This document shows positions 8,611 through 35,484 of a stretch of 64,000 nt of DNA, one piece after another. Each line of letters begins with the position of its first letter. Position 1 is the stretch's first letter. A program made the translations under genes and the position numbers. Location: assembly GCA_025917655.1 (NCBI GenBank), contig CP084608.1, positions 2,356,001-2,420,000 of the forward strand, read 5' to 3'. The notes beneath the pieces are model-generated. The model was not told where the DNA came from, made no database searches, and worked only from the letters and a program-made list of their open reading frames with translations. This DNA is from Chlorella sorokiniana (lineage: Eukaryota > Chlorophyta > Trebouxiophyceae > Chlorellales > Chlorellaceae).

Positions 8611-11600
8611 ATGCGGCGCTCCTGGGCCGTGAGCCTGGGGAGCAGCCTGCTGGTGCTGCTGGCGGCGGCCGTGGGCGCCGTGCGCGAGACCAAGTATTAC
8701 GACGCGCTGGGCGTGTCGCCGGATGCCGACGATCGCACAATCCAGAAGGCCTACCGCAGAGCAGCCCTGTGCGTGCAGCAGCCGCTGTAGGGGCCTGCAG
8801 GACGAGCCATGCTCTGGCGCCGCCAGACCTGCCGCCTCCGGATGCGCGTTTTCTGTTGCCGCCTGGTGGGCTGCCAGGACGGTTCTGGATGCGCAGCCCC
8901 CAATGATGCACACATCTGCTGGTGTGTGCAGGCGGTACCATCCCGACCGCAACCCGGACAAGCCCGATGCCGAGGAGCGGTTCAGAGCGGTGGCAGAGGC
9001 GTACGAGGTGCTGTCGGGTGAGAGCAGCCGCCGCCGCTGCTGGGCTGCACGCGCTCCTTTCTTTCTATCTGTGCAGCGTGTGCACATGTCACATTTGTAC
9101 CAGCATTTGCCAGCCTCCCGCTGTGCCGGTGTGGCTTGGCCGCACTGGGGTGGGGTCTTAGTGTGCCCGCTTGCAGGGAAGCGCTACCGGACCCCTGGTC
9201 TCTTCATCTCTGGCCATGACCCCCTGTTTCCTCTTCTTTCTTCCTTGCAGACTCCCAGAAACGGGAGGTGTACGATCGCTACGGCGAGCAGGGCCTGAAG
9301 CAGGGCGGCCCCGGGGGCCCGGCGGCGCCCCGGCGGCGGCTTCCACTTCCAAGGTTCAGACGCCTTCAACATCTTTGAGACCGTGTTTGGCGGCATGGGC
9401 GGCGGCGGCGGCGGCCAGCGCGTGCACTTCCAGTTTGGCGGCGGCGGCATGGGTGGAGGTGGGCTCGCCGCATCGGGGTTGCGTGGCAGGGCAGGCGTGC
9501 TGAGGGCTTACCAACCCTCAGCGGGTTGCTACACAAAGCGCCTAGCTTGTCCCAGGTATGGCCAGATCACCCTGCCGTGACAAACACATGCGCCGCTGCG
9601 CTCTCCCCCTGTTGCAGGTCCCTTTGGCGGCGGCATGGGCGGCGGCGGCGGCGGCGGGGGCGGCGGCGGCAGCGGGACTCGGCAGGGCTGTACGACAACG
9701 ACGCCTTTGTGCAGGTGGGGCGGCACACCCAGGGTTGGCCTCCAGTCAGAGCCCTTTGTGGGGCGGGAGGGTGCACCTGGGCAGCCGGACGCCTCCACTC
9801 GGCATCCGGGCCTCCAGGCATGCCCGCACAGCATTTGCCTCACACCCTTTGACGCCGCCGACGGCTCTCTGGCTGCCCTGCGCGCGGCCCTGCCAGCCAT
9901 CAAATGTTGCTGCCGCTGCTCTCCACTGTCCAAATCGCAGGATCTTACAGAAGACACCTTCCCCGAGGGCGACGGCGACGGCTGGATCTGGCTGATTGAG
10001 TTTTACGCCCCCTGGTGGTGAGGCGGGCAGCTGGGTGTGGGCCCCTGCGCCTCCCTGCTTTCTAGCCCCCTGCTTGCTGGTCCCTGCGGGTGCCATCCCC
10101 GTGCCTCCTTTCTTTGTGGCACGCCCCCTAAATCCCCCTTAACAGCTGCACCTCTGCAGCGCTGAACAGCGCCGCACTGGCTGGCACTCGCACGTCGCCG
10201 CAAGCCATGCGCTCCTCGGTGCGACCTGGCCGCCCTCTCCCTTGCCCCTGCAGCGGCCACTGCCGCCAGCTGGCGCCCAAGTGGCGCAAGGTGGCCGAGG
10301 CGCTGCACGGCGTGGCAAAAGTGGCGGCCGTCAACTGCGAGCAGCAGCAGGGGCTGTGCCAGGAGCACGGCGTGCGCGGCTACCCAACCATCATGGCCCT
10401 CAGGTGCGCCGGCCCAGCGGCGCCAGCTCAGCAGGTGCTCGAAATGGACGCGCGCCTGGCGCAGCGCCAACTCCGGGCCGCTCGCCAGCCTGCACCCTTC
10501 TTGCGCCTCCCTCCCTGAACACCCCCTCCCCCGTCCTCCTGCTTCTTTGACGGGCACCTGGGTGCAGCGAGGGGCGGTTGCGAGAGTACAGCGGCGATCG
10601 CTCGGCGCGACACCTCAAGGACTGGGCGCTCGGCCTGCTCCCCAAGCACATCAAGAGCCTGAGCAAGGCGTCGCAGCTGCCGGACTTCCTGCGGCAGTGC
10701 ACCGCGGGCGCGGGCAGCGCCGCCAAGTGGGGGCGTGTGCGCGCTGCTGCTCAGCGACAAGAGCGAGACGAGCGCGCTGTACAAGAGCCTGGCGCTCAGG
10801 TGTGTGCCCAAGGGTGGGTCGTGAATGGAAGCGTCTTGCTGCATTTTGTGGGAATGGGGATATAGGGGGCAGCTGCTCTGGACAGGAGGGAGGGGGCATG
10901 CTGCACCTACCGCTGGCCGCCTGTTTGCTACCGCTGTCATGGGCTACTAGCCGCCTCGCGCTGGCCGGTGTCAACTGCCGCCGCCGCGCCGCCGCAGGTA
11001 CAAGGGCAAGATTGCGTTTGGCGAGGCTCTGCGCTCCAACCCGGAGCTCAGCGGCACGTTTGGCGTGCACGAGTACCCCTCCCTGCTGGTGGTCTGCGGC
11101 GGCAACAAGGACGTCGTGGTGAAGTATGAAGGTGTGCGAGGGTTCTCCAAAAACACAAGGCGGCGGTTCTTCTTCCCACCCAACCCTGGGCTGTCGACGC
11201 CAGCTTTGCACTGGCCGTGCTGGCCTGTCCCTCAACCGGCAGCTGTCGTTGGTGGGGACAGGTGGACGGGTGTTTGGGAGCGCTGCAGCCGCCGATGCCG
11301 TGCCCCGTGGACTTCACGGAACACACTGCCATGCCCAGCTTCTTCACAACCCGCTCAACCTGCCTGGCTGCAGGGGAGTTGAAGTCGACAAAGCTCTCGC
11401 GCTTCCTCAACCAGTTTTACAACGGCAAGGCATGCGCCGCAGCGGTCAAAATAGGTGCGAGCATTGCCTCCACCCACCGCTGCGCATGCACACCCGCTCG
11501 CCTGCTTTGAGCAACCTAGGCCCTGCGTCTCCGGCACGGTTGTTGGTGTGCTGCTTTGGAGGGCCTCCTGTTGCCTTGCTGGCCTTTGCGTTGCTGAGCA

Positions 11601-11785
11601 CTGCTGCCGCCGCTGCTGCCGATGCAGACGCAAACACGGACCTCAGCAAGATGCGGGTGGGCCAGCTGAAGCAGATCCTGGAGACGCGGGGAGAAAAGTG
11701 CAAGGAGTGCGTGGAGAAGGGAGACTACATCGCCAAGATCCGGCAGGTGTTTGGCGTCGACAGCGGCGCGCACTCCGAGCTGTGA
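8611..11785 (+). CDS. ER-type DnaJ/thioredoxin fusion protein with C-terminal CxxC (MANF/SAP-like) domain
   Basis: Predicted ER-lumen co-chaperone and oxidoreductase, comparable to ERdj5/DNAJC10. The N-terminus is a clear signal peptide ([17 protein letters not shown]). A J domain follows ([20 protein letters not shown]), with the HPD motif split over the first intron ([16 protein letters not shown], exon 8932-9017). A Gly-rich segment with [18 protein letters not shown] comes next. A thioredoxin fold follows with active site [16 protein letters not shown], the APWCGHC junction lying across an intron (10017/10254). A further thioredoxin-like region carries the hydrophobic strand [19 protein letters not shown]. 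The last exon (11628-11785) has [20 protein letters not shown], resembling the C-terminal SAP-like domain of MANF. The protein ends in HSEL, a plausible HDEL-type retention signal. Frame slips at G/C runs (9313-9317, 9328-9331, 9656-9660, 10729-10733) probably reflect sequencing. Confidence 0.88.
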
Positions 11786-15332: not shown

Positions 15333-18300
15333 ATGCCCGAGCTAACGCTCTTTAGGAGACGTTGGCATACCGCCACCGGTGAGAGCGGCACGATAGCATG
15401 GGCCGCGGGGGTGGCCCCGGCGGCAGTGCTGCGTTGCCGCCTCCGGCGTTGGCCCTCCGCCCCCTCTGCCGAATTGTTACTCTGCACCCCTTGCAGATGC
15501 GCTGCCCCTCCTAATGGTTCTGCTGTGCGTCTTCCACCTGCTGTGGTTTGTGCCGTATGCAACAGGTGCGTTGCCTGCCGCAATCTGTTGGCCTAGCACG
15601 CGGTTTGCTGGGTGCTGCCGCTCATGCCGCCATCGTTCTGCGCTTTGCAGGCGCGTATTCCATTGAGGGCACAGGCCTCAAATACGAATGCGCGCATGCC
15701 ACCGAGCTGCGCGTGGCCAACTACAGCCTGTTTGCCACCTTTGGGCTGGCTGCAATCAACGAGGCGGTGCTGACGGTTCTGGGCCTGCGAGGTGCGGTCT
15801 CTTCGCCAAGCTGCTGTGCCGTGCACAGAGCGGAGCAGCATTGTCACGGAGGCTGGCTTCCACATGACATGATTGCTGCAAACGATGGGCAGTACAAAGG
15901 GTGGCGCATGCATTGCCTGCCGCAGGAGGGCCGTTTGAGACGCGGAAGCGGCGCTTCATGAACCCGCTTCTGTACCTGGAGATCGTGCTCTGGGGGCTGC
16001 TGCTGGCCTTCACAAGTGAGCGGCATGCTGCGCAGCGCGATTTCACTATTAGCTGTCAACCTTGTAGTTCTACTTTTTTAGTTTCCGTTATGTAGTTTCC
16101 TTTGTAGCATGGGTCACTCCTTCCTTGAAGTTCATGCTTGTCTGCGTGCTACGCCCCTCCCACACACCCTCTCCAGTCTATGCCACCGTGACGGTCTACT
16201 CACCCGCGGTTGCCGACAGCTGCTGGTCCAACAACCCATGCCAGTACAACCCCGACCTTTTCCCGCTAGCATGCCGCGACAAGAGGGGCACAGGTGAGCT
16301 CAGCAACAGATGCCTCCCTGGGTGTGGGCAGTTGCAGCGTTGCACGCGGCGCTGTGTCGCCTCCCATGTGCTGCCCCCCAAAAAAAAAAAAACATACACA
16401 CACACACACCACACGCATTCGCACGGGCCACCCCGGTGTAGGCGCCATACGATCGCTGCCTGAGACCTGCCAGAAGTTGCTGCAGGCGGGGCCCAATTTC
16501 ATGTGAGCTTGCAGCATCCTCCACTTTTCGCAGTGTTGCTTACATGCAGGGGTTGCAGCTCTGCTCCCACCTCGCCAGCGGCGGGCATCTGAAACAGTCC
16601 TGCTGGCCACTCCATCTTTGGACGGTACCGCCGTACTACCAACTATCCCTGACGCAGGTACTGCTGGCTGACGTGGCTGGTGAACGGTGCCAACTGGGCG
16701 GGGACGGCTGTGTACGACATTGTGGCCTTCTTCACACGACTCGAGGAGGAGGGATTCCCTGGAATAGACATCACCCCGGCCGGCGACGTCAACGTCACAA
16801 GCAACGCCACCGCGGTCATAGTGGCGGAGTGGTTCGTCTGCTTCATCAAGTGCGTTCTCCACAGCTCAGCTCATCTTTGCGGTTGGAACCAGGCGTGGGT
16901 GCCCGTGAAGCACTGCCTGCATGCACCGCAGCAGCTGCAGAGCGCCGGCACTGCGGGCCTCCCCTCGGCAGCTGCAGCACGACAGCCTGGCCGTTGCATT
17001 GCCGTCGTGCACGTTTGGGGGTACCTGGCTCGTTCGACGCGCCGTGGTGGGGTCGCCCTGATGCATGGCCCGGCTGCGGCCTTGCGCATGTGCCTGGCTG
17101 CAGGAGCAGGACGAGCGACAGCGACGCCGTGCTGGACAACCTGCTGGCCACCACAGGCTCCACAGAGGACGACAGCGAGGAGGTGGACTTCATCCGGGAG
17201 TATGCAGACGACCCCGATCTCAACTGCACCGGCGTGCTGGAGCGCTGGAACAAGTGAGGGGCTGCTTTCTTTCCTGGGGCAGCTGGGAAAGGTGTGTGTG
17301 GGGTGTGTGTGGGGGTGGAGGGGAGGGGAGGGGGAGGCGCGCGTGCGTGCACATGCCCATGGCAATTTCGCTGCGTTTGGCCAGGGCCCCCCCCTCTCCC
17401 CCGCCCCCCGGGGGCAGTGCTTGGGCCCAAGTGGCAGCATGCCTGCTGACTGTTAGGCTGGTGCGCAGCTGGCGCAGCTTGTAACGAACTGGCCGCATTT
17501 ACTCCCTCTCTTCCCGCAGCGGGCAACTGTTCTCGCAGTGCAATTCCACCAATGACCCCGTTTTTTGGAACCAAACCCGTAAGCGCGGGCGGTGCCATGG
17601 CAGCTGCTGCCTTATGCTGCAGCGTTGTGCCGCCGCTAGAGGTTGCCGGCCGTGCCTCCTGCCGTGCTTCCAAAGTGCCTCCTCCCCCTGCGGCGCTCTA
17701 TTGCAGTTGCGTTGCAGTTGGTAAGGTTGCGGTGCCAACTGTTCCTGCCCTCTTGGTCCTCCTGCTGCAGTGGAGATCGATCTAGATGTGTCGGCAGGGG
17801 CTGTGGAGGGCGAGGATGGCAACGTCCTGTTTGACGTCCCGGTGGGTGGGGTGCCAGCCTGGCTGTCAAATCTGTGAACAACCATCAGTCAGTGGGTCCT
17901 TGCACTTGATCGCCTTGCGTGCGTCGCTGCGCCTGTCCGCCGCGCAGCGCCCTGTGACCACGCCTGCTGTGGCTCTGCGCAACTTGCACAGGGCGTCACC
18001 ACCATCTCGGAGTACAATGCGTTCCTGCGGGAGCACCCCAACCTCTTCCAGTGTGAGTGTGCTTCGGGAGCTCCCTCCCTCACCGGGAACTGCCCTGCAT
18101 GTGGCCCCGACATGCAAGCAGCTGGGCAGGGTGCTCCTTCCCCACAGGCTGCACCTCCTTTTTAACATACGCCGTCCCATCGCACACGCCCCCAACCCCT
18201 GCCGCAGTCTACAACCAGCAGATGCTGGAGGCCATTCGGCAGTCCGGCATCCTGGACATCGGGATAGGCGGCAACTTCAACCTGTCCAAGGCCTCGGTGG

Positions 18301-21300
18301 GATGCCGTCGCCAGCAGCTTGCTTAGCTTGTGCAACTTGGTGCCCTGGTCACATTGCCGGCTGCTGCAAGGCAGCTGCCCCCTCAGCGACTCGCCCGTGT
18401 GCTCCCTCTGCAGGACACGCCGTGGTTCTCCTGCATGAATGCAACCTGCCAGGAGCAAACCTAGTGAGGATCTCTTTGCATGTTGCTTGTGTTCACCTGA
18501 ACATACTTCGCAGGGCCGTGTGCACTGTACATCGCTGTGTGCCCTGCACCCCTGCCTGCAGCTGGGCTGATGACTGCCAGGAATGGGCGCAGATTCTCGC
18601 ACTGCCCCAGCCGAAAAACAGGCGAGCTGTCCCTTTCGCTGCTTGGTGGCACACTGGGCTGTCAATGTGCTCATCACCATCTCGCGCTCTTGGTGCAGCA
18701 AGCCGTTCTTTGAGATCCTGGTCATCACCTCGTGGACCGTGCTGGCCATCACAGCGTGAGGACTGCTCGGCCCCCCGCATGCCCTGCCCCGTGCACCATT
18801 AAGCTGGCCCAACTCGGTTGCGGCCACTCAGCCTGGCCATACGTTCTTGCTATCTGCCAAGGGCCTCCCTCCCACCTGCAGCTTGGTGCTGTTCCTGTGC
18901 TTCAACGCCTTCCCCGACTACAACGACGTGGACAGCTGGGAGGGCACGCTGCGCAGCATCGACCGCATGTGCCTGTGCGGCGGCGGCCTGGCCGCCTCGG
19001 CCAACGTCAGTGGCAGGTGTGCTGGCCGGAGGCAGGCCAGCCCCACTGCATCCAGAGCCGCGCTGCGCTGGTTCTCTGCCAGCGTTCCTCATTCCTCACC
19101 CTCCTTTCGTCCCCGGCTGCAGCGACATGAGTGTTTCGCGGGAAATTGCTCAGTTGCTGAACCTGCTCTTTGGGGGCATTGACATGGACCCCACGGGTGG
19201 GCCCCCAGCAAGCGTTGCTGCCTAGTTTCTGCTGCCATATATGGCGCTGACTGTCCTGGCAAGCGAATTTGCTTGAGAGACCTATAACCACCCCGCCCTG
19301 TCTCCTGCAGACCGCCTGCTGGGTGTTTATCTGGTTAGCGAGCGACAGCACCGGCGGCGGCAGCACGACGTCCTTGCGGCGTTGCAGAAGGCTGGTGAGT
19401 CCTCTTGTGCAGTGTCGTTGCAAGCGCCCACTTTTAGTTTCCTTCAGCTCAGACTCCACAACAAAGGCGCGCTCTTCCCCTTGGGGCAGGCATTATTGCG
19501 GAACAGAAGCGCACGCGGTCAAGGAGGCTCCGCGATGCCTTGTCCAAGCTGAACCCGAAGCGATCCAGCGGCAGCAAGCAGCAGCAGCCTGGCAGCCCAG
19601 CAGCCGCGGCCCTCCCCTCGCATCCAGAGACGACCGATAAGGGTTCAGCAGCCAGCGCCGATGGCGCCGAGCCCCCGCTGGCTGTCCCGCTGAACGGCAG
19701 CAACGCGGGCGACAGCAGCGGCAGCGGCCCCGGCCGCCCTCGGCTTGCCGCTGAGGTGCCCGCAGCAGCAGCAGCAGCAGCAGCAGACGGCAAGCTTCTG
19801 GCGTCGCCTTTTGACGTTTCTGCAGCGCCAGCCGCCTCCCCCGCACTCAGCTGGGCCAGCCTCCCAGGTCCAGCGACCCCCGGCTGTTGATGTACCAGCA
19901 CAGCATGGTGCGTCTGCAGAGCAGGGTAGCACGCAGCATCAGCGCCGGCTCCCCCATGGCCGAGGACAGCGCTGCTGAAGACCTAGCTGCAGCAGAGGCG
20001 GGGCGGGCTGCCGGCGGCGAGCAAGCCGCCGGCGTGGCGGAAGCCGAGCCAGAGCAAGTGCTGGAGGGGCCTGCGGACAGCGGCAGCACGCAGCAGAGCG
20101 GTCAGAAGCAGGCAGCGGCGCAGCAAAGCACAGCTGCGTTCCAGAGTTCGGCGGTCAGAGTTGTGGCCAGGCAAGGCTGCCCGGCACTGTACATCCTGCT
20201 ATTGGCGTGTTTGTCGAGCCGCTTACCGTCTCCTGTGTGTGCCCTTGCCGCAGCTTCCACCCACTGCTGACGCCAAGCGGATGTGCGTCTGCCGGGAAGC
20301 TGTGCGGGCCGCCCCCTCTCGCCCCAGGAGGCGGCTGAGATTTATGCGGGTGAGCGGCTGCCCTCTCCTGCAGGGGTGGACGGCCGCTGCCTGCCTGGTG
20401 TGCCATGCCGCCAGCAGCCGCGATGTTGTGCACAGCTTGCCCCGCTCCTTCGCTCCACCCTGCGGCAGGCAAGCTGGATCCGGTGGATCACGGCACGCTG
20501 CGGCAGGCACAGCGCATCAGTCGCTCGCGGTGGCGGCATACGGCCTGCAAGGCGTCATCTGGGCCAAGGGCCAGTGAGTGGCTGCCCTGTCTGACGCCCT
20601 TTCGTGGAAGCTGCTCACCCTTTCAGCCCGGCCCCTGCTAGCCTGCGCTTTGCTGCTGGCAGCTGCAGCCGCAGCGCGTTCCCGACCCAGCACGGCCTCT
20701 GCGTGTCGCTCCGCTGAGCGCAGGCGGCCCACAATGTGCCTGGCCAACGCCAACCGCCTGGTCAAGTGCTTCAAGCGGCCGCTGGGCCTGGAGAACAAGT
20801 TCCGCAAGCAGAACTTTGACACCATCCTGCAGATGACAGGCAAGATCGAAAGGCGGGCGCGTGTGCCCGGCGTGCGCTGAGCACGCTGCCTGTGGTTTTC
20901 GGTAGAGTGGAAGGGCTCTATGTGTTGATGGACAGTGCATCATCCACCGTTTCAGCTGCCCTTGGTCAACAACCTCTTCCACCCCCGTTCCCCACCCCCA
21001 CCCAATCTCTCCCACATCATCGTTTGGGTCATCAGCGCGCGCTCACACCCCGCCTCACCCGCCGCACCCGCAGGCGTGGCCCCCGCCGACCTGCTGTACG
21101 TCAACTACACCAACGTCGCGGGCGGGGTACTGCCCTACCTGCTCATGCTGCACCGCCCCTCCAAGTCGGTGGTGCTGTCGGTGCGCGGCACAGGTGGGCT
21201 GGGGAGCTCGGGTTGAGCGAGAGGGTGTGGTGGTGAGGACATGGCGCCTGCAAGGCAAAGCGGCGCGCCGTGGGCACTCAAGACGCCCCCCTCCACATGC

Positions 21301-23847
21301 ACTGCAGCCTGCAGGATGTTGGGGCCGTGTGCACGCCAGCGCGGGCGCTGCTGACAGCCACCCCCTCTATGTTGCTTTCCACCCCCTCTCCGCTTCGTTC
21401 CACCCCTCGCAGTGAGCATGGAGGATCTGATCACTGACCTGCTCTCAAACCCCGTGGATGTGGCGGGCTGGGTGCCGCAGTGGGTGCGCGAGGAGCGCGG
21501 CTGCGCCAGGCATCTGGGGCAGCGGGGACGCCAGCGGCGACGGCCTCAAGGCCCACATCGGCATCGTCAGCAGCGCCACCGCCATTCTGAAGGACCTGGA
21601 GGAGAGGGGGCTGCTGCGGGTGAGGCGTCGAGGGGGGAGTGGCACTGCTGGGTGGGGCAGCGGCAGCTTGGCCTGGCGCATCCGACATTCCCTGGCGGGC
21701 GCGCACTACATCCGTTGCCGTGGCGGCGGGGCGATTGTTTTGCTCCCAACAGCACCCGGCTCTCCTGCTGCCCCTGCTCCTGCAGGAGATGCTGCTGTCC
21801 AAGCTGCTGAGGGCTGCCACGCTGGCGGGACGCGACTCGCAGGCTGTCATCGCCGAGTTCCTGGCCGGCCACAAGGGCGGCGAGCTTCCGGAGCTGCCGG
21901 TTAGGCCAGCTGGCATGAGCGGCGGGGCTCGCAGCTGGGCGGCGACCCCTTGGCTGCGGCGGCGGCAGGGAGCGGCATTGGTGCGCCCAGCGGCGGCGAG
22001 GAGGAGGATGCGCAGTTTGCCGAGGCAGAGGAGCGACACCTGTCCCGCCTGCGCCGGCTGGACGAGGGGCGCGAGGTGGAGCTGCCCCTCAAGCGGGCGC
22101 AGACCATCATCCGGTGGGCAGGCCGAGCATGCAGGCGCCGCTCGTTGACATTGTTGACAGACCGCCAGCTGGCCAGCTCTGCCTAGAAAGCACGGCCGAG
22201 GAGGCGAGGTGCATCTCAACTCCTCACGCTCGCGCTCCCAGCCCCCGCCATCCGTCGTTGCCGACCCGCAGGTCCAAGCTGCAGCTGCAGGGTTGGAAGG
22301 TGGTGGTTACAGGGCACTCCCTGGGCGCGGCGGTGGCCACGCTGCTGGGCATGCAGCTGCGCGAGCGCTTTGCCGACCTTGAGTGCTGGGCCTTCAACCC
22401 GCCGGGCGGGCTGCTGAGCTGGGAGCTGTCTCAGATTGCACAGTGCTACTGCACCAGCGTGGTGGTGGGCAAGGACGTGATCAGCCGGCTGAGGTGAGAG
22501 GGGGGAAGGGGGCTTTGCGGGGGGCTGTGGGGGAACCACAAGGCGGCTGAGGGGTCGGTGGGAGAGGAGGAGGCACCACAGGACCGTCCGCACCCACCCA
22601 CCCACCCACCCACCCTCACACCCCCACAGCAGCATCCATGCTGCCATCTCTGCATGTTCTCCAGCTTTTGCCTCCCCCTTTCTTCCCTCCGGCAGCTTCA
22701 CCACCTCCAAGCGGGTGGTGGACGAGATGGTGGTGAGCCTGGCGCGGTGCAAGCGCCCCAAGCTGAAGGTGCTGCTGGATGTGGCCCTGGGGCGGCGCAA
22801 GCGCGCCGCCTCCACCCCCACACCTTCTGCAAGTTCGAGGAGGTCGGGCCCGAGGCGCTTCAGCTGGTGGAGCAGTGAGTCGGGGGCGGATGGCCGCGGC
22901 CTGTGCGCTGGTTCTGCATGCACGGCTGCAGTTGGGCAGGCAGCCGCAGGCCACGCGTGGTGCTCCAGCGGCGCGCTCATGAGCTCACGCCCTGCCGTGG
23001 GCGCGCCGCTGTGTGCAGGTATTACCGCGCCAGCCACCTGCACATGCAGGGCGCCGACACGACTGAGATGTACCCTCCGGGTGAAGGGGCAGGGGCAGAG
23101 GGGCAGCGCCTGCACGTGCAGTACGCGGCCAGGCTGTACTGCGAGGGCTGCACTGCCGTACCGCAGCTGCGTTGCTGCCACCGCTTCGCCACAGAATGGG
23201 CCGCACCGCCGTCCCCTCACCCCTGCCATCCTTGCTGCTGCAGGCAAGCTGGTGTTCATGCGGCCCTTCAAGGGCAAGAAGAAGCAGCAGACGGTGTGGG
23301 ACGCGGTGTGGATCGACGCAGCCAGTGAGTGCAGCTGGGTGCCAGCTGGCGATCAACTGGGCTGCTGCGCACTGCTTTCTCAGTTGGCATGCCGCTGCAC
23401 AGCCATGCACGCTAGAGGGGGTGCAATAGAGGAGCTGTTTGGCTCAACCCCCCCCACCCCACCCCACCCCACCCCACCCACACACACACACACACACACC
23501 CGCCCCCTGCAGCCCTGATTTCTGAGGGCATCCTGGTGACCCCCACCATGATGGCCCACCACCGCCTGTTTGTGCTGGCAGAGGCGTTCGAGGTGTGCTG
23601 GCTCTCAGGGGAGGGGAACCCAGCAGCTGTGGGTTGTTGAGCAACGCTCAGCATGCTGAGAACCATCGTCGCGGGAGGCGCCGTGCCTGCCCTGTGAACG
23701 GCAGGTTTCGCATGCAGCCCCTCAGGCATCCGCGTGCTCCCCGGCCGCCCAAACCCTGGCCTGCAGTCCATCTTTGCTGGGGAGGTGGCCACCGATGCGG
23801 CAGCACCTGACGAGCAGGCAGAGGAGGAGGACCTCATGTTCCAGTGA
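15333..23847 (+). CDS. sn-1-specific diacylglycerol lipase (DAGL family), copy 1
   Basis: Membrane lipase expected to cut diacylglycerol at sn-1, giving 2-monoacylglycerol and a fatty acid. The start MPELTLFRRRW resembles animal DAGL. Four membrane segments follow: LPLLMVLLCVFHLLWFV, FATFGLAAINEAVLTVLGL, LLYLEIVLWGLLLAFTIYAT and FEILVITSWTVLAITALVLF. Between the third and fourth lies a loop of roughly 300 residues (exons 16177 to about 18620) rich in Cys and N-glycosylation sequons. Then come IAQLLNLLFGGIDMDPTDRL (matching the DAGL segment before the catalytic core), a low-complexity linker and a class 3 lipase domain: LSVRGT, the nucleophile in GHSLG (22312-22326), the Asp in VVGKDVISRL and the His in MMAHHRLF. 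More than 20 exons; stop 23845-23847. One intron (18622) starts GC where copy 2 has GT. Several frame slips (near 20300, 20530, 21500, 21930, 22815) are mostly absent from copy 2. Confidence 0.9.
22596..22625 (+). repeat. (CCCA)n-type simple repeat in a DAGL intron, shared by both copies
   Basis: A run of CCCA units sits in an intron of DAGL copy 1 and recurs in the same intron of copy 2 near 31948-31975. Flanking intron sequence is also almost unchanged, which supports recent exchange between the two copies in this part. Confidence 0.75.
23443..23500 (+). repeat. C-rich (CCCCA)n followed by (CA)n microsatellite
   Basis: A compound simple repeat lies in a DAGL copy 1 intron just before the exon starting near 23515. 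The matching intron of copy 2 (32860-32915) is C-rich but lacks the array, so the two copies differ here. Confidence 0.85.
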
Positions 23848-24807: not shown

Positions 24808-27800
24808 ATGCCCGAGCTAACGCTCTTTAGGAGACGTTGGCATACCGCCACTGGTGGGAGGGGCAAGATAAACCTGGGCAACGGGGTGGCCCCGGCGGCA
24901 GCTGCGTTGCTGCCTCCGGCGTTGGCCCTCCGCCCCCTCTGCCGAACCTTCACATTGCACCCCATGCAGATGCGCTGCCCCTCCTCATGGTTCTGCTGTG
25001 CGTCTTCCACCTGCTGTGGTTTGTACCGTATGCAACAGGTGCGTTGCCTGCCGCTGTTGGCGCAGCACGCGGTTTGTTGGGTGCTGCCGCTCATGCCGCC
25101 ATCGTTCTGCGCTTTGCAGGCGCGTACTCCATTGAGGGCACAGGCCTGAAGTATGAATGCGCGCACGCCACCGAGCTGCGCGTGGCCAACTACAGCCTGT
25201 TTGCCACCTTTGGGCTGGCGGCAATCAACGAGGCGGTGCTGACGGTTCTGGGCCTGCGAGGTGCGGTCGCTTCGCCAAGCTGCTGTGCCGTGCACAGAGC
25301 GGAGCAGCATTGTCACGGAGGCTGGCTTCCACATGACATGGTTGCTGCAAACGATGGGCAGTACAAAGGGTGGCGCATGCATTGCCTGCCGCAGGAGGGC
25401 CGTTTGAGACGCGGAAGCGGCGCTTCATGAACCCGCTTCTGTACCTGGAGATCGTGCTTTGGGGGCTGCTGCTGGCCTTCACAAGTGAGCGGCATGCTGC
25501 GCAGCGCAGTTTCCACTTTACTATGGTTTGTTGCAAGGAACACGCTTTCTTGAGCTTCATGCGTAAGGTTGGGCCGCGCCCTTCCAACCCCCTCCAGTCT
25601 ATGCCACCGTGACGGTCTACTCACCCGCGGTTGCCGACAGCTGCTGGTCCAACAACCCATGCCAGTACAACCCCGACCTTTTCCCGCTAGCATGCCGTGA
25701 CCAGCAGGGCACGGGTGAGCTCAGCAACAGATGCCTCCCTGGCTGTGGGGAGTTGCGCCGTAGCATGCCTCAGTGTGTCGCCTCCCATGTGCTGGCGCCC
25801 CCCCCCACCCCACCCACACACACACACACGTACACAAGTGTTACCCCGGTGTAGGTACAATACGATCGCTACCCCAGACTTGCCAGAAACTGCTGGAGGC
25901 GGGGCCGAATTTCATGTAAGCTTCCAGCGCCCTCCGCTTTTGCAGTGTTGCCCAAGACGCCAAAAGATTTAGTGCAGGGGACGCATTCAAGCTTTACTTT
26001 CTCATCCTGCGGTGGTGGCCATCTGGTACAACCCTGTTGGCCACTTCTTTCTTGGACGGTACCATTGTCCTGCCACTCTTCCATGCTGCAGGTACTGCTG
26101 GCTAACGTGGCTGGCCAATGGCGCGAACTGGGCAGGGGCCGTTGTGTACGACATTGTGGTCTTCTTCAAATTGCTTGAGGAGGATGGATTCCATGGAATA
26201 GACATCAACCCGGCTGGCAACGTCGAATTCACAAGCAACGTCACCACGCGCATAGTTGCAGGGTGGTTTGTTTGCTTTATCAGGTGCGGTCTGCACAGAT
26301 TAGCCCCGCTTTGCGGTAGTAGCCCATGGCATTGCGGGCCTTCCCTCTGCAGCTGCAGCACGACAGCCGGGCGCCGCATTGCCGTCGTGCACGTTTGGGG
26401 GTTGCTGGCCTGCTCAACGAGCCGTGGTGGCGTCGCCCTGATGCGTGACCGACTCCTGCATTGCGCATGTGGTTGCAGGAGCAGGACGAGCGACAGCGAC
26501 GCCGTGCTGGACAACCTGCTGGCCACTGCGGGCTCCACCGAGGATGACAGCGAGGGGGTGGACTTCATCCGGGAGTATGCAGACGACCCCGACCTCAACT
26601 GCACTGGCGTGTTGGAGCGATGGAACAGGTGAGGGGCCGCTTTCTTTGGTGGTGGGGTGGTGTGTGTCTGTGTGTGGGTGGGGGTGGGGGTGGGGGTGGG
26701 GGGTGGGGGGGGCAGGGGGGCAGGGGGAGGAGGGGCCCGGGGGGCGGGAGGAGCGGGGGAGGAGGGGCGATGGGGGAGGGGGGGGGGAGGAGGGGGGTTG
26801 AGGAGGGGGAGGCGGGGGGGGAGGGGGCTCGCGCGTATGCTCATGGGATCTTGGCTGCAGCGCTTGGCCCAAGTTGCAGTATGCCTGACGGTTAACCCGG
26901 TGTGCAGCTGGCGTAGCTTGTAAAGAACTTGCCGCGCTCCTCCTTCTCTGCGCGCAGCCGGCAAATGTTCTCGCAATGCAACTCCACAAACGACCCCGTC
27001 TTTTGGAACCAAACGCGTGAGTGGGGCGGTGCCAAGGCAGCTGCTGCCTTGTGCTGCCGCAGCAAATTTGCCTTTAATGGGTTTGCCGTGCAGTGCTTTA
27101 AGAGTGCCCACTACCATACTTGCAGTTGCTGAGATTGCTGTGCGAACTGTTGCTGCCCTCGTGGTCCTCCCGCTGCAGTTGGGATCGAGCTGGATGTGTC
27201 GGCAGGGGCTGTGGAGGGGGAGGATGGCTCCGTGCAGTATGGTATCCCGGTGGGTGGAGCGCCAGTCAGGCTTGTTTCTAAAATAATTGGCTGTGGTTTC
27301 GTCTGCTAGGTCGCCTAGCGTGCGTCGCTGCACCTGTCTGCTGCGCAGCACGCCCTAAGACCACGCCTGCTGTGAACCTGCGCACATTCTGCAGGGCTTC
27401 ACCACCGTTTCGGAGTACAATGCGTTCCTGCGGGAGTACCCCAACCTCTTCCAGCGTGAGTGTGCTTCGGGAGCTCCCTCCCTCACCAAGAACTGCCCTG
27501 CATATGCATGCGTGTGGCCCCGACATGCGAGCAGCTGGGCAGGATGCTCCTTCCCGCAGGCTGCGCCTCCTTCTCAAATACGCGCGGTCGCATCGCGTGT
27601 GCCCCTCATCCCTTCCGCAGTGTACAACCAGTTCTTTCTGGAGGCTATCCGGCAGACCGGCATCCTGGACATCGGCATAGGCGGCAACTTCAACCTGTCC
27701 AAGGCCTCGGTGCGATGCCGTCGCCAGCAGCTTGCTTAGCTTGTGCAACACGGTGCCCTGCTGCAAGGCAGCTGCCCCTCCAGCGACTGGCCCCTATGCT

Positions 27801-30800
27801 CCCTCTACAGGACACGCCGTGGTTCTCCTGCATGAATGCAACCTGCCAGGAGCAAACCTAGTGAGGATCTCTGCGCATTCTGCTTGCGTGCACCTGACAT
27901 ACCTTGCGGGGCTGTGTTCACTGTGCACTGCTGTGTACCCTGCACCCCTCCTGCAGCTGGGCTGAAGACTGCCAGGAGTGGGCGCAGATTCTCGCGCTGC
28001 CCCAGACTAAGAACAGGTGAGCTGTCACTTTTCGCTGCTTGGTAGCTCACTGGGATTTCACTGTGCTGATCACCGTCTCGCGCTCTTGGTGCAGCAAGCC
28101 GTTCTTCGAGATCCTGGTCATCACCTCGTGGACCGTGCTGGCCATCACAGCGTGAGAACTGCTCAGCCCACCTCTTGCATGCCCTGCCCCGTGCACCATC
28201 AAGCTGGCCCAATCTCGGTTGCGGCCACTCAGCCAGGCCATACGTTTCTTGCTTTTTGCCAAGGGCCTCCCTCCCACCTGCAGCTTGGTGCTGTTCCTGT
28301 GCTTCAACGCCTTCCCCGACTACAACGACGTGGACAGCTGGGAGGGCACGCTGCGCAGCATCGACCGCATGTGCCTGTGCGGCGGCGGCCTGGCCGGCTC
28401 GGCCAACGTCAGTGGCAGGTGTGCTGGCCGGAGGCAGGCCAGCCCCACTGCATCCAGAGCCGCGCTGCGCTGGTTCTCTACCAGCGTTCCTCATTCCTCA
28501 CCCTCCTTTCGTCCCCGGCTGCAGCGACATGAGTGTTTCGCGGGAAATTGCTCAGTTGCTGAACCTGCTCTTTGGGGGCATTGACATGGACCCCACGGGT
28601 GGGCCCCCAGCAAGCGTTGCTGCCTAGTTTCTGCTGCCATATATGGCGCTGACTGTCCTGGCAAGCGAATTTGCTTGGAGAGACCTATAACCACCCCGCC
28701 CTGTCTCCTGCAGACCGCCTGCTGGGTGTTTATCTGGTTAGCGAGCGACAGCACCGGCGGCGGCAGCACGACGTCCTCGCGGCGTTGCAGAAGGCTGGTG
28801 AGTGCTTTGGTGCAGTGTCGTTGCAAGCGCCCACTTTTAGTTTCCTTCAGCTCAGACTCCACAACAAAGGCGCGCTCTTCCCCTTGGGGCAGGCATTATT
28901 GCGGAACAGAAGCGCACGCGGTCAAGGAGGCTCCGCGATGCCTTGTCCAAGCTGAACCCGAAGCGATCCAGCGGCAGCAAGCAGCAGCAGCCTGGCAGCC
29001 CAGCAGCCGCGGCCCCCCCTCGCATCCAGAGACGACCGATAAGGGTTCAGCAGCCAGCGCAGATGGCGCCGAGCCCCCGCTGGCTGTCACGCTGAACGGC
29101 AGAAACGCGGGCGACAGCAGCGGCAGCGGCCCCGGCCGCCCTCGGCTTGCCGCTGAGGTGCCCGCAGCAGCAGCAGCAGCAGCAGCAGACGGCAAGCTTC
29201 TGGCGTCGCCTTTTGACGTTCCTGCAGCGCCAGCCGCCTCCCCCCACTCAGCTGGGCCAGCCTCCCAGGTCCAGCGACCCCCGGCTGTTGATGTACCAGC
29301 ACAGCATGGTGCGTCTGCAGAGCAGGGTAGCACGCGGCATCAGCGCCGGCTCCCCCTCGGCCGAGGACAGCGCTGCTGAAGACCTGGCTGCAGCAGAGGC
29401 GGGGCGGGCTGTCGGCGGCGAGCAAGCCGCCGGCGTGGCGGAAGCCGAGCCAGAGCAAGTGCTGGAGGGGCCTGCGGACAGCAGCAGCACGCAGCAGAGC
29501 GGTCAGAAGCAGGCAGCGGCGCAGCAAAGCACAGCTGTGTTCCAGAGATCGGCGGTCGGAGTCGTGCCTAGGCAAGGCTGACGTTCACTGTGCATGGTGT
29601 TTCTGGCGTATTTGCCGAGCCGCTTACCGTCTCCTGTGTGTGCCCTTGCCGCAGCTTTCACCCACTGCTGACGCCAAGCGGATGTGCGGCTGCCGGGAAG
29701 CTGTCTGGGCCGCCCGTCTCGCCTCAGGAGGCGGCTGAGATCTATGCGGGTGAGCGGCTGCCCTCTCCTGCTGGGGCGGACCGCCACTGCCTGCCTGGTG
29801 TGCCATGCCGCCAGCAGCCGCGATGTTTTGCCCAGCTTGCCGCACTCTTTTGTTCCACCATGCGGCAGGCAAGCTGGACCCAGTGGATCACGGCACGCTG
29901 CGGCAGGCACAGCGCATCAGCCGCTTCGCGGTGGCGGCATACGGCTTGCAGGGCGTCATCTGGGCCAAGGGCCAGTGAGTGATTGCTGTCTTTCCTTTGC
30001 GGCGGCTGCTCAGCCGTGCAGCCGGGACCTTGCCAGCTTGCGCTTGCCTGCTGGCAGCTGCAGCCGTCGCTTGTCTTCGACAGCACACCGCCTCTGCGCG
30101 TCACTCCGCGCAGGCGGCCGACAATGTGCCTGGCCATCGCCAACCGCCTGGTCAAGTGCTTCAAGCGGCCGCTGGGCCTGGAGAACAAGTTCCGCAAGCA
30201 TAATTTTGACACCATCCTGCAGATGACAGGCAAGATCGAAAGGCGGGGGTGTGCTCATCTACCCCTGCCGACCAGAAGAGGGGCACCCTACCTGCACATG
30301 CGCCTCTGCGGCGTCGCCGTTGGCGAGCTCCGCTGTTTGTTGACGGACAGCGCTTATGTCGCATTATCCACCGTTTCAGCTGCCCTTGGTCCAACCACCT
30401 CGTCTACTTTCACTTCCCACCCCCTCCCCAGCTGCTTCCCCATCATAATTTGGGTCGCAAAGCGCGCGCTCACACCCCGCATCAGCCGCCGCACCCGCAG
30501 GCGTGGCCCCCGCCGACCTGCTGTACGTCAACTACACCAACGTCGCGGGCGGGGTGCTGCCCTACCTGCTCATGTTGCACCGCCCTCCAAGTCGGTGGTG
30601 CTGTCGGTGCGCGGCACAGGTGGGCGCAGCTGTGAAGCCGGGGCTGAGTGAGCAGGTGGATTGGTGGGGGCGTGGTGGTTGCAAAGGGACGCGCCTTGTG
30701 TACACAAGTTCGCCCCTCCACAGCAGCCTGTCCTGCGCCCACAGCCACCCCCTCTCCGCTTCTCTCCAACCCCTCTCCGCTTCGTTCCACCCCTCGCAGT

Positions 30801-33248
30801 GAGCATGGAGGATATGATCACCGACCTGCTCTCAAACCCCGTGGATGTGGCGGACTGGGTGCCTGAGTGGGTGCGCGAAGAGGCGCGGCTGCGCCGGGCG
30901 GCGAGCACCGCGGGGGGACGCCAGCGGCGACGGCCACAAGGCCCACATCGGCATCGTCAGCAGCGCCACCGCCATTCTGAAGGACCTGGAGGAGAGGGGG
31001 CTGCTGCGGGTGAGGCGCAGGGGCCCGGGGGTGGGGGGCTGGGGGGCTGCTGGCAGCGGCAGGCTTATTGCCTGGTGGGTGCTCGATCCTTCCTGTGCAA
31101 TGGCGGCTGCGGCGACCGTTTTTCTCCCAACAGCACCCAGCTTTCCTGCTGCCCCTGGCCCTGCAGGATATGCTGCTGCCCAAGCTGCTGCGGGCGGCCA
31201 CGCTGGCGGGACGCGACTCGCAGGCCGTCATCGCCGAGTTCCTGGCCGGCCACAAGGGCGGAGAGATTCCGGAGCTGCCGGCCAGGCCAGCTAGCATGCA
31301 ACGGCGGGGCCCACAGCTGAGCGGCGACCCCTTGGCTGCGGCGGCGGCAGGGAGCGGCATTGGTGCACCCAGCGGCGGCGAGGAGGAGGATGCGCAGTTT
31401 GCCGAGGCAGAGGAGCGACACCTGTCCCGCTTGCGCCGCCTGGACGAGGGGCGCGAGGTGGAGCTGCCCCTCAAGCGGGCGCAGACCATCATCCGGTGGG
31501 CAGGCCGAGCATGCAGGCGTCGGCTGTTGACCCCAGCTGGCCAACTCTGCCTGGGAAGCATGGCTGAGGAGGCGAGGTGCAGTCCCAACTCCTCACAGAC
31601 ACCCTCACAGCCTCCGCTGCCCGTCGTCGTTGCTTCCCCGCAGGTCCAAGCTGCGGCTGCAGGGTTGGAAGGTGGTGGTTACAGGGCACTCCCTGGGCGC
31701 GGCGGTGGCCACGCTGCTGGGCATGCAGCTGCGCGAGCGCTTTGCCGACCTTGAGTGCTGGGCCTTCAACCCGCCGGGCGGGCTGCTGAGCTGGGAGCTG
31801 TCCCACATTGCACGGTGCTACTGCACCAGCGTGGTGGTGGGCAAGGACGTGATCAGCCGGCTGAGGTGAGAGGGGGGCGGGTGAGGGGAAGATGAAGCCG
31901 GGCTGAGGGGTCGGCGGGAGAGGAGGAGGCACCACAGGACCGTCCGCACCCACCCACCCACCCACCCACCCTCACACCCCCACAGCAGCATCCATGCTGC
32001 CATCTCTGCATGTTCTCCAGCTTTTGCCTCCCCCTTTCTTCCCTCCGGCAGCTTCACCACCTCCAAGCGGGTGGTGGACGAGATGGTGGTGAGCCTGGCG
32101 CGGTGCAAGCGCCCCAAGCTGAAGGTGCTGCTGGATGTGGCCCTGGGGCGGCGCAAGCGCGCCGCCTCCACCCCCCACACCTTCTGCAAGTTCGAGGAGG
32201 TCGGGCCCGAGGCGCTTCAGCTGGTGGAGCAGTGAGTCGGGGGCGGATGGCCGCGGCCTGTGCGCTGGTTCTGCATGCACGGCTGCAGTTGGGCAGGCAG
32301 CCGCAGGCCACGCGTGGTGCTCCAGCGGCGCGCTCATGAGCTCACGCCCTGCCGTGGGCGCGCCGCTGTGTGCAGGTATTACCGCGCCAGCCACCTGCAC
32401 ATGCAGGGCGCCGACACGACTGAGATGTACCCTCCGGGTGGGGGTCCGGGGCGGAGGAGCAGCGCCTGCACGTGCACTATGGGTCCAGGATGTACCGCAG
32501 GGGCGGCTGCACTGCCTGCCGCTGGACCGCACCTGGCTGCGTTGCTGCCACCGCTGGGCCGCCCCCTGGCTGTTTGCTGCCATCGCTGCACCACAGCATG
32601 GGCTGTACCGCCGCCCCTTCACCCCTGTCATCCTTGCTGCTGTATTCTTGCTGCTGCAGGCAAGCTGGTGTTCATGCGGCCCTTCAAGGGCAAGAAGAAG
32701 AAGCAGACGGTGTGGGACGCGGTGTGGATCGACGCAGCCAGTGAGTGCGGCTGGGCGCCAGCTGACGAGCACCAGGGCTGCTGCGTATTGCTGCTTTCTC
32801 AGCTGCGCATGCTGCAGCGCAGCCGTGCACGCTAGAGGGGCGCAGTCAGGGAGCTGTTTGGCTCACATTCTCCACATCCCCCTCCCGCACCCCTCCCCTC
32901 CCTGGTTTTCTGCAGCCCTGATTTCTGAGGGCATCCTGGTGACCCCACCATGATGGCCCACCACCGCCTGTTTGTGCTGGCAGAGGCCTTCGAGGTGTGC
33001 TGGCGCTCAGAAGAGGGGAACCCAGCAGCCGTGGGCTGTTGTTGAGCAACGCTCAGCCTGCTGAGAGTGGTTGCCACGCAAGGCGCCGTGCCTGCCGTGC
33101 CTGGCAGTTTGCGTGCAGCCCCTCAGGCTTCCCGCATGCTTCCCGGCCGCCCTACCCTAGCCTGCAGTCCATATTTGCTGGGGAGGTGGCCACCGATGCG
33201 GCGGCGCCCGACGAGCAGGCAGAGGAGGAGGACCTCATGTTCCTGTGA
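24808..33248 (+). CDS. sn-1-specific diacylglycerol lipase (DAGL family), copy 2
   Basis: Tandem paralogue of the preceding gene with the same architecture: MPELTLFRRRW start, four membrane segments, the long non-cytosolic loop, a linker and the class 3 lipase core. The nucleophile motif GHSLG is at 31684-31698; the Asp (VVGKDVISRL) and His (MMAHHRLF) regions are also present. This copy reads through several places where copy 1 slips, for example ISRFAVAAYGLQGVIWAKG near 29920 and HTFCKFEEVGPEALQLVEQ near 32170-32235. It has its own slips at 30583-30585 and 32943-32946, where copy 1 has one more C. Amino-acid changes cluster in the loop (PNFM flanks, ASGSTEDDSEG region, KPF exon borders) and the linker. 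The upstream DNA differs from that of copy 1 beyond 52 bases, so regulation could differ. Stop at 33246-33248. Confidence 0.9.
26643..26830 (+). repeat. Strongly G-rich intron tract in DAGL copy 2
   Basis: Nearly pure G and T at first, then G with scattered A and C, for almost 190 bases on the coding strand of an intron. Many separate runs of four or more G could form G-quadruplexes in DNA or pre-mRNA. The corresponding intron of copy 1 (17254-17519) has only a shorter G-rich start. Confidence 0.85.
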
Positions 33249-33487: not shown

Positions 33488-33825
33488 ACTGATGCATAAC
33501 TGTTGCTGCTGCCGGCAGCTAACCATCAGATACATCCCAACGGTACACTGTTTTACAGCCCGCTCCCAGCGGTGCATCATGGTACATGTGCTATAAAGGA
33601 AGTGCTGCGGATAAAGTGCGTGGATGCGATGGGTAAAACAGGGTTGCGGCAGGGGGAAGGATGCTTTCAGTCTTGCCTGGAGCAGATCAAAGAACAGCTT
33701 GCATGTGTGAAAGATGAAAAGAGGCTAAAGCTACACTGTACATGGTGAAAATACAGATCAGACGCATGGTGCACGTTGCAGCGGGGTCTGTGCTTTTGTC
33801 CGGCGGTGGCAGCGCTGCCGCCGCC
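33488..33825. other. Convergent intergenic region
   Basis: It lies between unit B and the stop of the minus-strand dioxygenase gene. The stretch 33490-33770 is clearly less GC-rich than the genes around it. Nothing else was recognised. Confidence 0.45.
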
Positions 33826-35484
33826 TCACACCTCGTCGGCTTCGGCGCTGAGCGGCACGTGGAAGGCTGCTGGGTCTGGCTTCATGAGCCCCACGAAGCG
33901 CTCGCGCTCGTAGCCAGCGGTGTAGGAGCGGGGAAGTCGAGGTGGGGCGGCTGCGGGCGGTCGTCGGGGCAGCCCAGCCACAGGCGCACGAGGTGGCGGC
34001 GCTCGTGCGGGCGTCGCCGTCTTGGAAGGCGGAGCGGGCGTGGAGGATGGAGGAGTTGTGCAGCAGGATGACGTCGCCGGGCTGGAGGAGGTAGGAGATG
34101 GCGAAGTCGGGGTGCCCGCCGATCTCCTCAAACATCTGCAGCGCCTCCAGCTGCAGCGGGCTGAGCGGGCCCGCCAGCACCGGGTACTTGGCGGCGCAGA
34201 GCTTGTAGTGGGAGGAGTTGTAGTGGGTGGTGAGGAAGCCGGCGTGGTAGCTGAACACGGGCATCTCCCACAGGGGGCTGTCCTCCGGGGCCAGGTCCTG
34301 GTACCGCGAGCGGTCCCGGAAGAAGCCGGGCCCCGCCAGTGCCGCCACCAGGTCGCCGCGCGCCCCGCCGCAGCATCTCGTTGTGCACCGCCAGGGTGGA
34401 GGAGAAGGAGGAGACGCCGCCGTGCTTGGCCTGGCTGATGCAGAGCAGGCCTGGGGGTGGGGGTGGGGGGGGAGGCTGGCAGGCGTCAGCAGGGTTCTGC
34501 GGAGGTGGAGCCAGGTGCAGGGCCTGGTAGGGGCACAGTCGGGCGCTGGCCAGAGGGCAGAGGCAGGGGCTTTCCCCGAATCCACACCCACCCACCCACC
34601 CTACCACTTACATCACCACCCCGCCACACCCTCAGAGCAAAAACCAGAGAAGAGTTTGGAGCATGAACCCGCACCAGCGGCCGCACTCACCGAGCACGTC
34701 CGCTTGGCCGTCGGTGTGCAGCCCAAACTCGAGGTTGTGTGCGTGCTCGCGCTGCGGCACCGGGGCGGCGCCCGCTGCGGCGGCCCCGGAGGGGCGGTGC
34801 ATCTTGACGTGGTTGACCAGCTTGCCGTCCTTGGACTGCGGCTGGGGGCGGCCCAGGTGCACCCCCAGGCCCAGGTAGGCGGCCAGGCACTGAGCCTCAC
34901 TCCAGCGGCCCACCGGCAGCCCCGCAGCAGCGCAAAGCCGCGGCCGCGCAGCAGGTCGCGGCGCGTGGCCGCCAGCTTGCGGCCAGGCCGCCGCACAGGG
35001 GGAAGTCGGAGGGGCGCTGCAGGGCGGCCAGGGGGCGGCGCTGGCGGAGAAGGCGGCCACGGCGCGCTCCAGCTGCGCCACGTCAGCGGCATCCAGCTGC
35101 AGCACAGCCTCCTGCTCCCGCCCCGCCCAGTCGCATGCCCTCCAGGCGGCGGGGTCGTTGATGAGTGTGAAGGGGCGCACGCAGCCCTGGGGGCCGCTGG
35201 CGCTGCAGGGAGGGGAGCGAGCAAGGGGGCGGCGGTGACGGTCAGCACAGGTCGGCATGGGGGACCTGCGGGCAGCGGAACGGCAAGCAGCACACCGTGC
35301 TCCCATTTGCAATCGAATTGAGCAGGCAGGAAGCACACCTGGGAGCCGGTTCCAGGGCTGATAGGCGGCGGCTGGACAGGCGGCAGGACAGGCCGCGGAG
35401 GGAGCCAACGTTCACGTCCATGCTGCCGTGAGCGGTCAGCTCGGCATCGAAGGGCGAAGCCCCGGGAAGCTGCACGGTCGCCAT
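33826..35484 (-). CDS. TauD/TfdA-family Fe(II)/2-oxoglutarate-dependent dioxygenase
   Basis: Non-haem iron dioxygenase of the TauD/TfdA (clavaminate synthase-like) group; substrate unknown. The iron-binding HxD is in LEFGLHTDGQADVLG (codons for HTD at 34718-34710). The distal His is in GDVILLHNSSILHARSAF (His codon 34042-34040). Other family-like parts are GLGVHLGRPQPQSKDGKLV (near 34880-34820), QAKHGGVSSFSSTLAVHNEM (34440-34375) and WEMPVFSYHAGFLTTHYNSS (near 34270-34210). The C-terminus reads RERFVGLMKPDPAAFHVPLS and ends at 33826-33828. The start chosen is the ATG at 35484 (MATVQLPG); an in-frame ATG also exists at 35502. The N-terminal third crosses several frames at C-rich runs, so its exon structure is not settled. 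Similar proteins occur in plants and algae without a firm assigned reaction. Confidence 0.82.

What the first reader, a model, noticed from the sequence alone, without database searches (positions are those of the whole stretch)
16177..18621. A large, sequon-rich ectodomain inserted between TM3 and TM4 of an algal diacylglycerol lipase
In animal DAGL the third and fourth membrane helices are joined by about 20 residues. Here about ten exons encode roughly 300 residues there, with many Cys (for example ADSCWSNNPCQYNPDL, LACRD, ETCQ) and repeated N-glycosylation sequons (NVTSNAT, NCTG, CNSTN, WNQT, NLSK, MNATC). The loop should face outside or the lumen. It resembles no domain I know and could be a ligand-binding or regulatory ectodomain. 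Both tandem copies keep it, while residue changes between copies seem frequent there.
Basis: partly seen in the sequence, partly recalled or inferred. Interest (0 to 1): 0.8.

Follow-up and report, generated by a model that had tools for sequence, protein, structure and literature searches.

The report
Algal diacylglycerol lipase with large ectodomain
An alga carries two neighbouring copies of a membrane lipase related to the animal enzyme that makes the endocannabinoid 2-AG, and both copies encode about 300 extra residues of unknown fold, predicted to lie on the outer side of the membrane, where the animal enzyme has only a short loop.

Summary
Exons 5-14 (16177-18621; copy 2 25598-28016) add 304 residues between TM3 and TM4 of a DAGL-type lipase. 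The stretch is coding: between copies 0 of 10 exons carry an indel against 36 gap runs in introns 4-14, dN/dS is 0.22 (Z 5.2), and splice sites are kept (one GC donor). Skipping the whole 910-nt block breaks the frame in both copies. Hydropathy and charge give four TM helices and an exoplasmic loop. It holds 11 conserved Cys, 7 sequons (6 in copy 2) and a folded-type composition. Pfam, NCBIfam and PDB sequences give no match. The many residue changes are general divergence: dS is raised too, and dN/dS is similar in readable catalytic exons (0.26). No other alga could be compared and the whole loop could not be modelled, so age, fold and ligand binding stay open. Best reading: a folded exoplasmic domain, perhaps regulatory, of an otherwise orthodox DAGL. 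Caveat: the catalytic half of both copies carries frameshifts, from assembly error or decay.

The parts
15333..15378 (+). Copy 1 exon 1, MPELTLFRRRWHTAT (cytosolic N-terminus, DAGL-like FRRRW)
   Evidence: similarity to recalled human DAGL-alpha
15499..15555 (+). Copy 1 TM1 (residues 17-35, exon 2 15497-15565)
   Evidence: KD19 2.30
15728..15784 (+). Copy 1 TM2 (residues 65-83, exon 3 15651-15791); Cys52 lies in the TM1-TM2 loop
   Evidence: KD19 1.67
15967..16184 (+). Copy 1 TM3 (residues 100-118; exon 4 15926-16015, running into exon 5)
   Evidence: KD19 2.01
16177..18621 (+). Copy 1 ectodomain, ten exons: 16177-16293, 16442-16502, 16658-16849, 17104-17253, 17520-17578, 17771-17841, 17992-18052, 18208-18296, 18414-18463, 18562-18621 (GC donor after the last; GT in copy 2); residues 116-419
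   Evidence: splice sites and frame; constraint
18715..18897 (+). Copy 1 TM4 (residues 425-443; exons 15 and 16, 18699-18755 and 18882-19016)
   Evidence: KD19 2.51
19123..19394 (+). Copy 1 exons 17-18 (19123-19196, 19311-19394), EIAQLLNLLFGGIDMDPTDRLLGVYLV, aligns to the region after TM4 of human DAGL
20469..23846 (+). Copy 1 catalytic part (exons C1-C11, boundaries by eye) with GHSLG, GKDV, MMAHH; Lipase_3 in 22276-22491; 1-2 base length differences against copy 2
24808..33247 (+). Copy 2, tandem, same exon structure; ectodomain exons 25598-25714, 25855-25915, 26092-26283, 26479-26628, 26958-27016, 27179-27249, 27395-27455, 27621-27709, 27811-27860, 27957-28016

Best explanation
The region is a genuine, conserved part of a DAGL-type membrane lipase: an exoplasmic (ER-lumen or extracellular) domain of about 300 residues carried on the TM3-TM4 loop of an otherwise orthodox four-TM, cytosolic Lipase_3 enzyme. 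Shown here: it is coding in both copies, under purifying selection as a whole, cannot be skipped as a block without losing the frame, and has no strong TM helix by hydropathy; the charge pattern puts it opposite the basic N-terminus and TM2-TM3 loop. Inferred: it folds as a globular domain, held by disulfides (eleven Cys, plus Cys52 of the TM1-TM2 loop, makes twelve) and N-glycosylated. Inferred and least certain: it sits as a cap on the TM bundle and, because it is tethered to TM3 and TM4 and TM4 leads into the catalytic part, passes the binding of an outside partner, ligand or wall component to the cytosolic lipase, or sets where the enzyme is sorted.
For: 0 of 10 loop exons with indels against 36 gap runs in introns 4-14; dN/dS 0.22, Z 5.2. 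Block skipping breaks the frame in both copies (910 nt). Four helices with KD19 1.67-2.51; best loop segments 0.98-1.37. K+R: 3 in the 16-residue N-terminus and 5 in the 16-residue TM2-TM3 loop, against 15 in 306 ectodomain residues with 43 D+E. Sequons 7 against 2.9 expected. Charge-hydropathy on the folded side (0.476 against a boundary of 0.446; scale and boundary recalled).
Against: No transcript, glycosylation or structure data. No second species: the viral and prokaryote collections gave no relative of the loop. Sequon enrichment in copy 2 is only P 0.053. Constraint is uneven: exons 10, 11 and 12 taken singly have omega 0.65, 0.92 and 0.46 on few changes, so part of the loop may be weakly constrained; exons 5 and 13 are nearly invariant but also have low or zero dS. 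The exon 7 segments are borderline hydrophobic. The catalytic halves carry frameshifts, so activity of either copy is not assured.
Confidence: 0.7

Rival explanations
1. A passive structural or trafficking extension: the domain folds, is glycosylated and stabilises or sorts the enzyme, with no ligand and no signal to the lipase.
For: Loop omega 0.22 is similar to that of readable catalytic exons (0.26) and constraint is weaker than in TM1-3 (6.5 nonsynonymous changes expected at loop omega, 0 seen, P 0.0015); exons 10-12 are only weakly constrained.
Against: Its size and Cys content are more than a spacer needs, and residues 116-150 and 366-401 do not differ between copies, though synonymous divergence is low in part of these.
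Confidence: 0.4
2. The exon 7 segments (about 177-200 and 226-238) enter or cross the membrane as a pair, so the exoplasmic part is split in two pieces of about 57 and 186 residues and the protein has six rather than four membrane segments.
For: KD19 0.98-1.37; the unreliable AlphaFold2 model of exon 7 shows helices 3-30 and 49-62 of the exon.
Against: Summed insertion scale (recalled values) 6.1-8.3 against -2.9 to 3.6 for the four TM helices; higher helical moment (0.21-0.36 against 0.06-0.16); the second segment is short; the linker between them carries sequons. The AlphaFold2 model has pLDDT 52.
Confidence: 0.15
3. Both copies are decaying pseudogenes, so the loop no longer matters.
For: Nine 1-2 nt length differences between copies in the linker and catalytic exons; in each copy the expected frame breaks at some of them, and in exon C4 neither copy reads through.
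Against: No frameshift in 18 upstream exons of either copy; six of the nine lie in or beside runs of G or C, as consensus errors do; in C1, C3, C5, C7 and C10 the other copy reads on; readable catalytic exons still have pooled dN/dS 0.26.
Confidence: 0.13
4. The exons are a separate gene or are spliced out of the lipase mRNA.
For: No transcript data were available.
Against: Frames run through from exon 4 to exon 15; the block is 910 nt, so full skipping gives a stop at codon 182 in both copies. Smaller frame-keeping skips are not excluded.
Confidence: 0.03

Closest known systems
Animal sn-1-specific diacylglycerol lipases (DAGL-alpha, DAGL-beta)
   Different: TM3-TM4 loop of 304 residues instead of about 14-20 (recalled); low-complexity linker before the catalytic part.
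Lipases of Chlorella vulgaris (PMC7910983, passages and tables seen)
   Same: Green-alga lipases, 13 of 14 assigned to Lipase_3, some with TM helices.
   Different: Of 14 listed proteins six have helices listed in the table; in none of these six is the gap between adjacent helices near 300 residues, the largest being 89 (Lip_3928).
Tetraspanins (comparison of layout only, recalled)
   Same: Four TM helices, small first and large Cys-rich second extracellular loop between TM3 and TM4.
   Different: No CCG motif, no adjacent Cys in the loop (positions), and a lipase at the C-terminus; no Pfam match of the N-terminal half.

Membership tests
DAGL (sn-1-specific diacylglycerol lipase) | Sequence similarity to animal DAGL in the N-terminal TM region | tested here: met
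DAGL (sn-1-specific diacylglycerol lipase) | Four TM helices before the catalytic part | tested here: met
   Four segments with KD19 above 1.6 in both copies; own hydropathy script, no trained predictor
DAGL (sn-1-specific diacylglycerol lipase) | Lipase_3 domain with GHSLG nucleophile elbow, Asp and His | tested here: met
   Lipase_3 E 4.6e-9; GKDV by alignment, MMAHH by eye
DAGL (sn-1-specific diacylglycerol lipase) | Short TM3-TM4 loop as in animals (typical, not defining; recalled) | tested here: not met
   304 residues in both copies
DAGL (sn-1-specific diacylglycerol lipase) | Hydrolysis of diacylglycerol at sn-1 | not testable with these tools
   Needs an assay
Tetraspanin | CCG motif in the large loop (recalled) | tested here: not met
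   No two adjacent Cys among loop positions 131, 137, 148, 164, 177, 236, 280, 296, 389, 394, 404
Any known ectodomain family | Match to a Pfam or NCBIfam profile or a PDB sequence | tested here: not met
   0 Pfam families up to E 1 for the copy 1 loop and up to E 10 for both N-terminal halves, 0 NCBIfam up to E 5 (copy 1; a library built for prokaryotes), 0 PDB sequences up to E 10; remote folds not excluded

The most novel reading that the evidence does not exclude
A receptor-lipase: an extracellular sensor domain of new fold built into a DAGL, so that an outside ligand directly gates the release of monoacylglycerol inside the algal cell.
Probability: 0.13. Interest if true: 0.78.

Novelty: new variant of a known kind. 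Interest (0 to 1): 0.42.

Why it matters
Animal DAGL makes 2-arachidonoylglycerol and, as recalled, exposes almost nothing outside the cell, so its control is sought in the cytosol. A relative with a folded exoplasmic domain of 300 residues would show that this enzyme family can carry an outward-facing module, and would offer a natural system to test whether signals cross the TM bundle to the lipase. If the loop proves to be merely a lineage-specific decoration, it matters little.

Tried and rejected
Relatives: a scan of viral contigs with the copy 1 loop found no pattern match. Scans with both copies' N-terminal halves found 46 (viral) and 52 (genome) stretches, none a relative by tblastn. 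A DNA pattern for WAFNPPGG gave 0 viral and 5 genome stretches; in 4 of 5 the reading frame has no GxSxG at all, in the fifth a GRSGG 285 residues away, so I took none for a DAGL. The own genome is not held. No third copy in the window: tblastn hits outside the two copies all have E above 0.3. No internal repeat in the loop by self-BLAST.

Structure: AlphaFold2 on exon 7 alone (two rows) gave pLDDT 52 and pTM 0.28, unusable; no fold search was made on it.

Exon 8 may start at 17104 or 6 nt later (two acceptors); I used 17104. Symmetric exon shuffling as origin is not favoured: the block enters in phase 1 and leaves in phase 2.

Literature: searches (open-licence PMC only; one search showed 20 of 143 papers) listed no title or abstract on an algal DAGL ectodomain. 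Of PMC7910983 I saw passages and the tables section, of PMC11314389 and PMC9205912 passages only; of all others only the search listing.
Full report
What was checked. The finding names 16177-18621 as a large TM3-TM4 loop in an algal diacylglycerol lipase. I rebuilt the gene by hand from splice sites and by aligning the two tandem copies. Copy 1 reads without interruption from ATG 15333 through 18 exons to 19394; copy 2 does the same from 24808 to 28797. Each of these exons has the same length in both copies, and each boundary keeps AG at the acceptor and GT at the donor, except one GC donor after exon 14 of copy 1, which is GT in copy 2. The finding's coordinates are exactly exons 5 to 14.

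Is it really coding? The strongest evidence is the contrast with the introns. Introns 4-14 are 80% identical over aligned bases and carry 36 gap runs in 1930 columns; the ten loop exons carry none in 910 columns (17 expected, P 4e-8). Substitutions fall 27/20/57 on codon positions 1/2/3. Synonymous divergence is 0.329, nonsynonymous 0.073, ratio 0.22, Z 5.2. Taken singly the exons differ: omega is 0.05-0.28 in exons 5-9 and 14, but 0.65, 0.92 and 0.46 in exons 10, 11 and 12, on few changes, and exon 13 has no change at all. The block is 910 nt long in both copies, so joining exon 4 directly to exon 15 loses the frame and meets a stop at codon 182. A productive lipase therefore needs at least part of the block; smaller frame-keeping skips are not excluded.

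Is it a DAGL? The piece 22276-22491 matches Pfam Lipase_3 at E 4.6e-9. Between the first two N-terminal matches the human sequence has 100 residues and the alga 367, a net excess of 267; from the alga's hydropathy and the recalled human topology this excess falls between TM3 and TM4.

Topology. A 19-residue Kyte-Doolittle scan gives four segments above 1.6 in each copy: 17-35, 65-83, 100-118, 425-443. The best segments in the loop, both in exon 7, reach 1.03 and 1.35 in copy 1 and 1.37 and 0.98 in copy 2. With a recalled biological insertion scale these score 6.1-8.3, against -2.9 to 3.6 for the four helices. The exon 7 segments have higher helical moments (0.21-0.36 against 0.06-0.16), as amphipathic helices of a folded domain do. 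The N-terminus and the TM2-TM3 loop carry 3 and 5 basic residues in 16 each, the TM1-TM2 loop 2 in 29; the ectodomain carries 15 basic and 43 acidic residues in 306. The positive-inside rule thus puts the loop outside, on the same side as the TM1-TM2 loop with Cys52. No trained topology predictor was at hand. A paired membrane entry of exon 7 is kept as a rival.

What the loop looks like. It has 3.6% Cys and 3.3% Trp, eleven Cys that are all identical in both copies, seven sequons in copy 1 (2.94 expected, P 0.017) and six in copy 2 (2.90 expected, P 0.053); one sequon, N479, lies on the predicted cytosolic side. Charge-hydropathy puts it on the folded side. No Pfam family up to E 1 for the copy 1 loop or E 10 for both N-terminal halves, no NCBIfam family up to E 5, no PDB sequence up to E 10, by single sequence or two-row profile. 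These tests are by sequence and do not exclude a known fold.

The changes between copies. But synonymous divergence differs too: 0.116 in TM1-3, 0.328 in the loop, 0.024 from TM4 on, and identity in 500-column windows swings from 0.79-0.88 over the loop to 0.98-0.99 at 19061-20060 and back to 0.80 at 20559. This is what patchy gene conversion between tandem copies would leave (inference). Omega in the loop is 0.22, in 182 codons of five catalytic exons readable in both copies 0.26 (0.015/0.057; 6 of 182 residues differ). The loop is less constrained than TM1-3 (6.5 changes expected at loop omega, 0 seen, P 0.0015), but it is not accelerated against the catalytic exons.

What it most likely does. 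It is part of a membrane lipase, on the outside. A folded, disulfide-bonded, glycosylated cap tethered to TM3 and TM4 could steer sorting, stabilise the TM bundle, or pass an outside signal to the cytosolic lipase. I commit to an exoplasmic folded domain with fair confidence and to a regulatory role with low confidence; a passive role is about as likely.

Limits. In a Chlorella vulgaris survey of 14 lipases (PMC7910983, passages and tables) six have helices listed and none of the six shows a gap near 300 residues between adjacent helices, but that list is not a survey of algal DAGLs. Whether the loop is an algal gain, an animal loss or specific to one genus is unknown.

A caution about the gene. 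In the linker and catalytic half, nine 1-2 nt length differences separate the copies (two in the linker, seven in exons C1-C11), and one more lies near 20312 in what may be an exon. In each copy the expected frame breaks at some of them. Six of the nine lie in or beside runs of G or C; in C1, C3, C5, C7 and C10 the other copy reads through, in C4 neither does. Assembly error is the simpler reading because 18 upstream exons have none, but decay is not excluded.

Noticed in passing
19490-23846 and copy 2 28893-33247: Nine single- or two-base length differences between the copies in the linker and catalytic exons, and one more near 20312, break the expected frame in one copy or the other; six of the nine lie in or beside G or C runs. 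Assembly error or decay of both copies.
   Followed up: partly
19061-20060 and 22502-23000 (copy 1 coordinates): Stretches 97-99% identical between copies, introns included, alternate with stretches of 79-89%; a mosaic as left by gene conversion between tandem copies.
   Followed up: partly
18622 (copy 1); 20840: GC-AG intron after exon 14 of copy 1 where copy 2 has GT-AG; exon C2 of both copies also seems to end at a GC donor.
   Followed up: no
9581-11785 (+): Thioredoxin-like stretch by eye (EFYAPWW; no Pfam match for that single frame) followed by an ARMET_C end (E 2.4e-14): possibly a disulfide isomerase joined to a MANF/ARMET-type tail.
   Followed up: no
33758-34597 (-): TauD/TfdA-type dioxygenase (E 1.5e-10) downstream of copy 2 on the other strand.
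   Followed up: no
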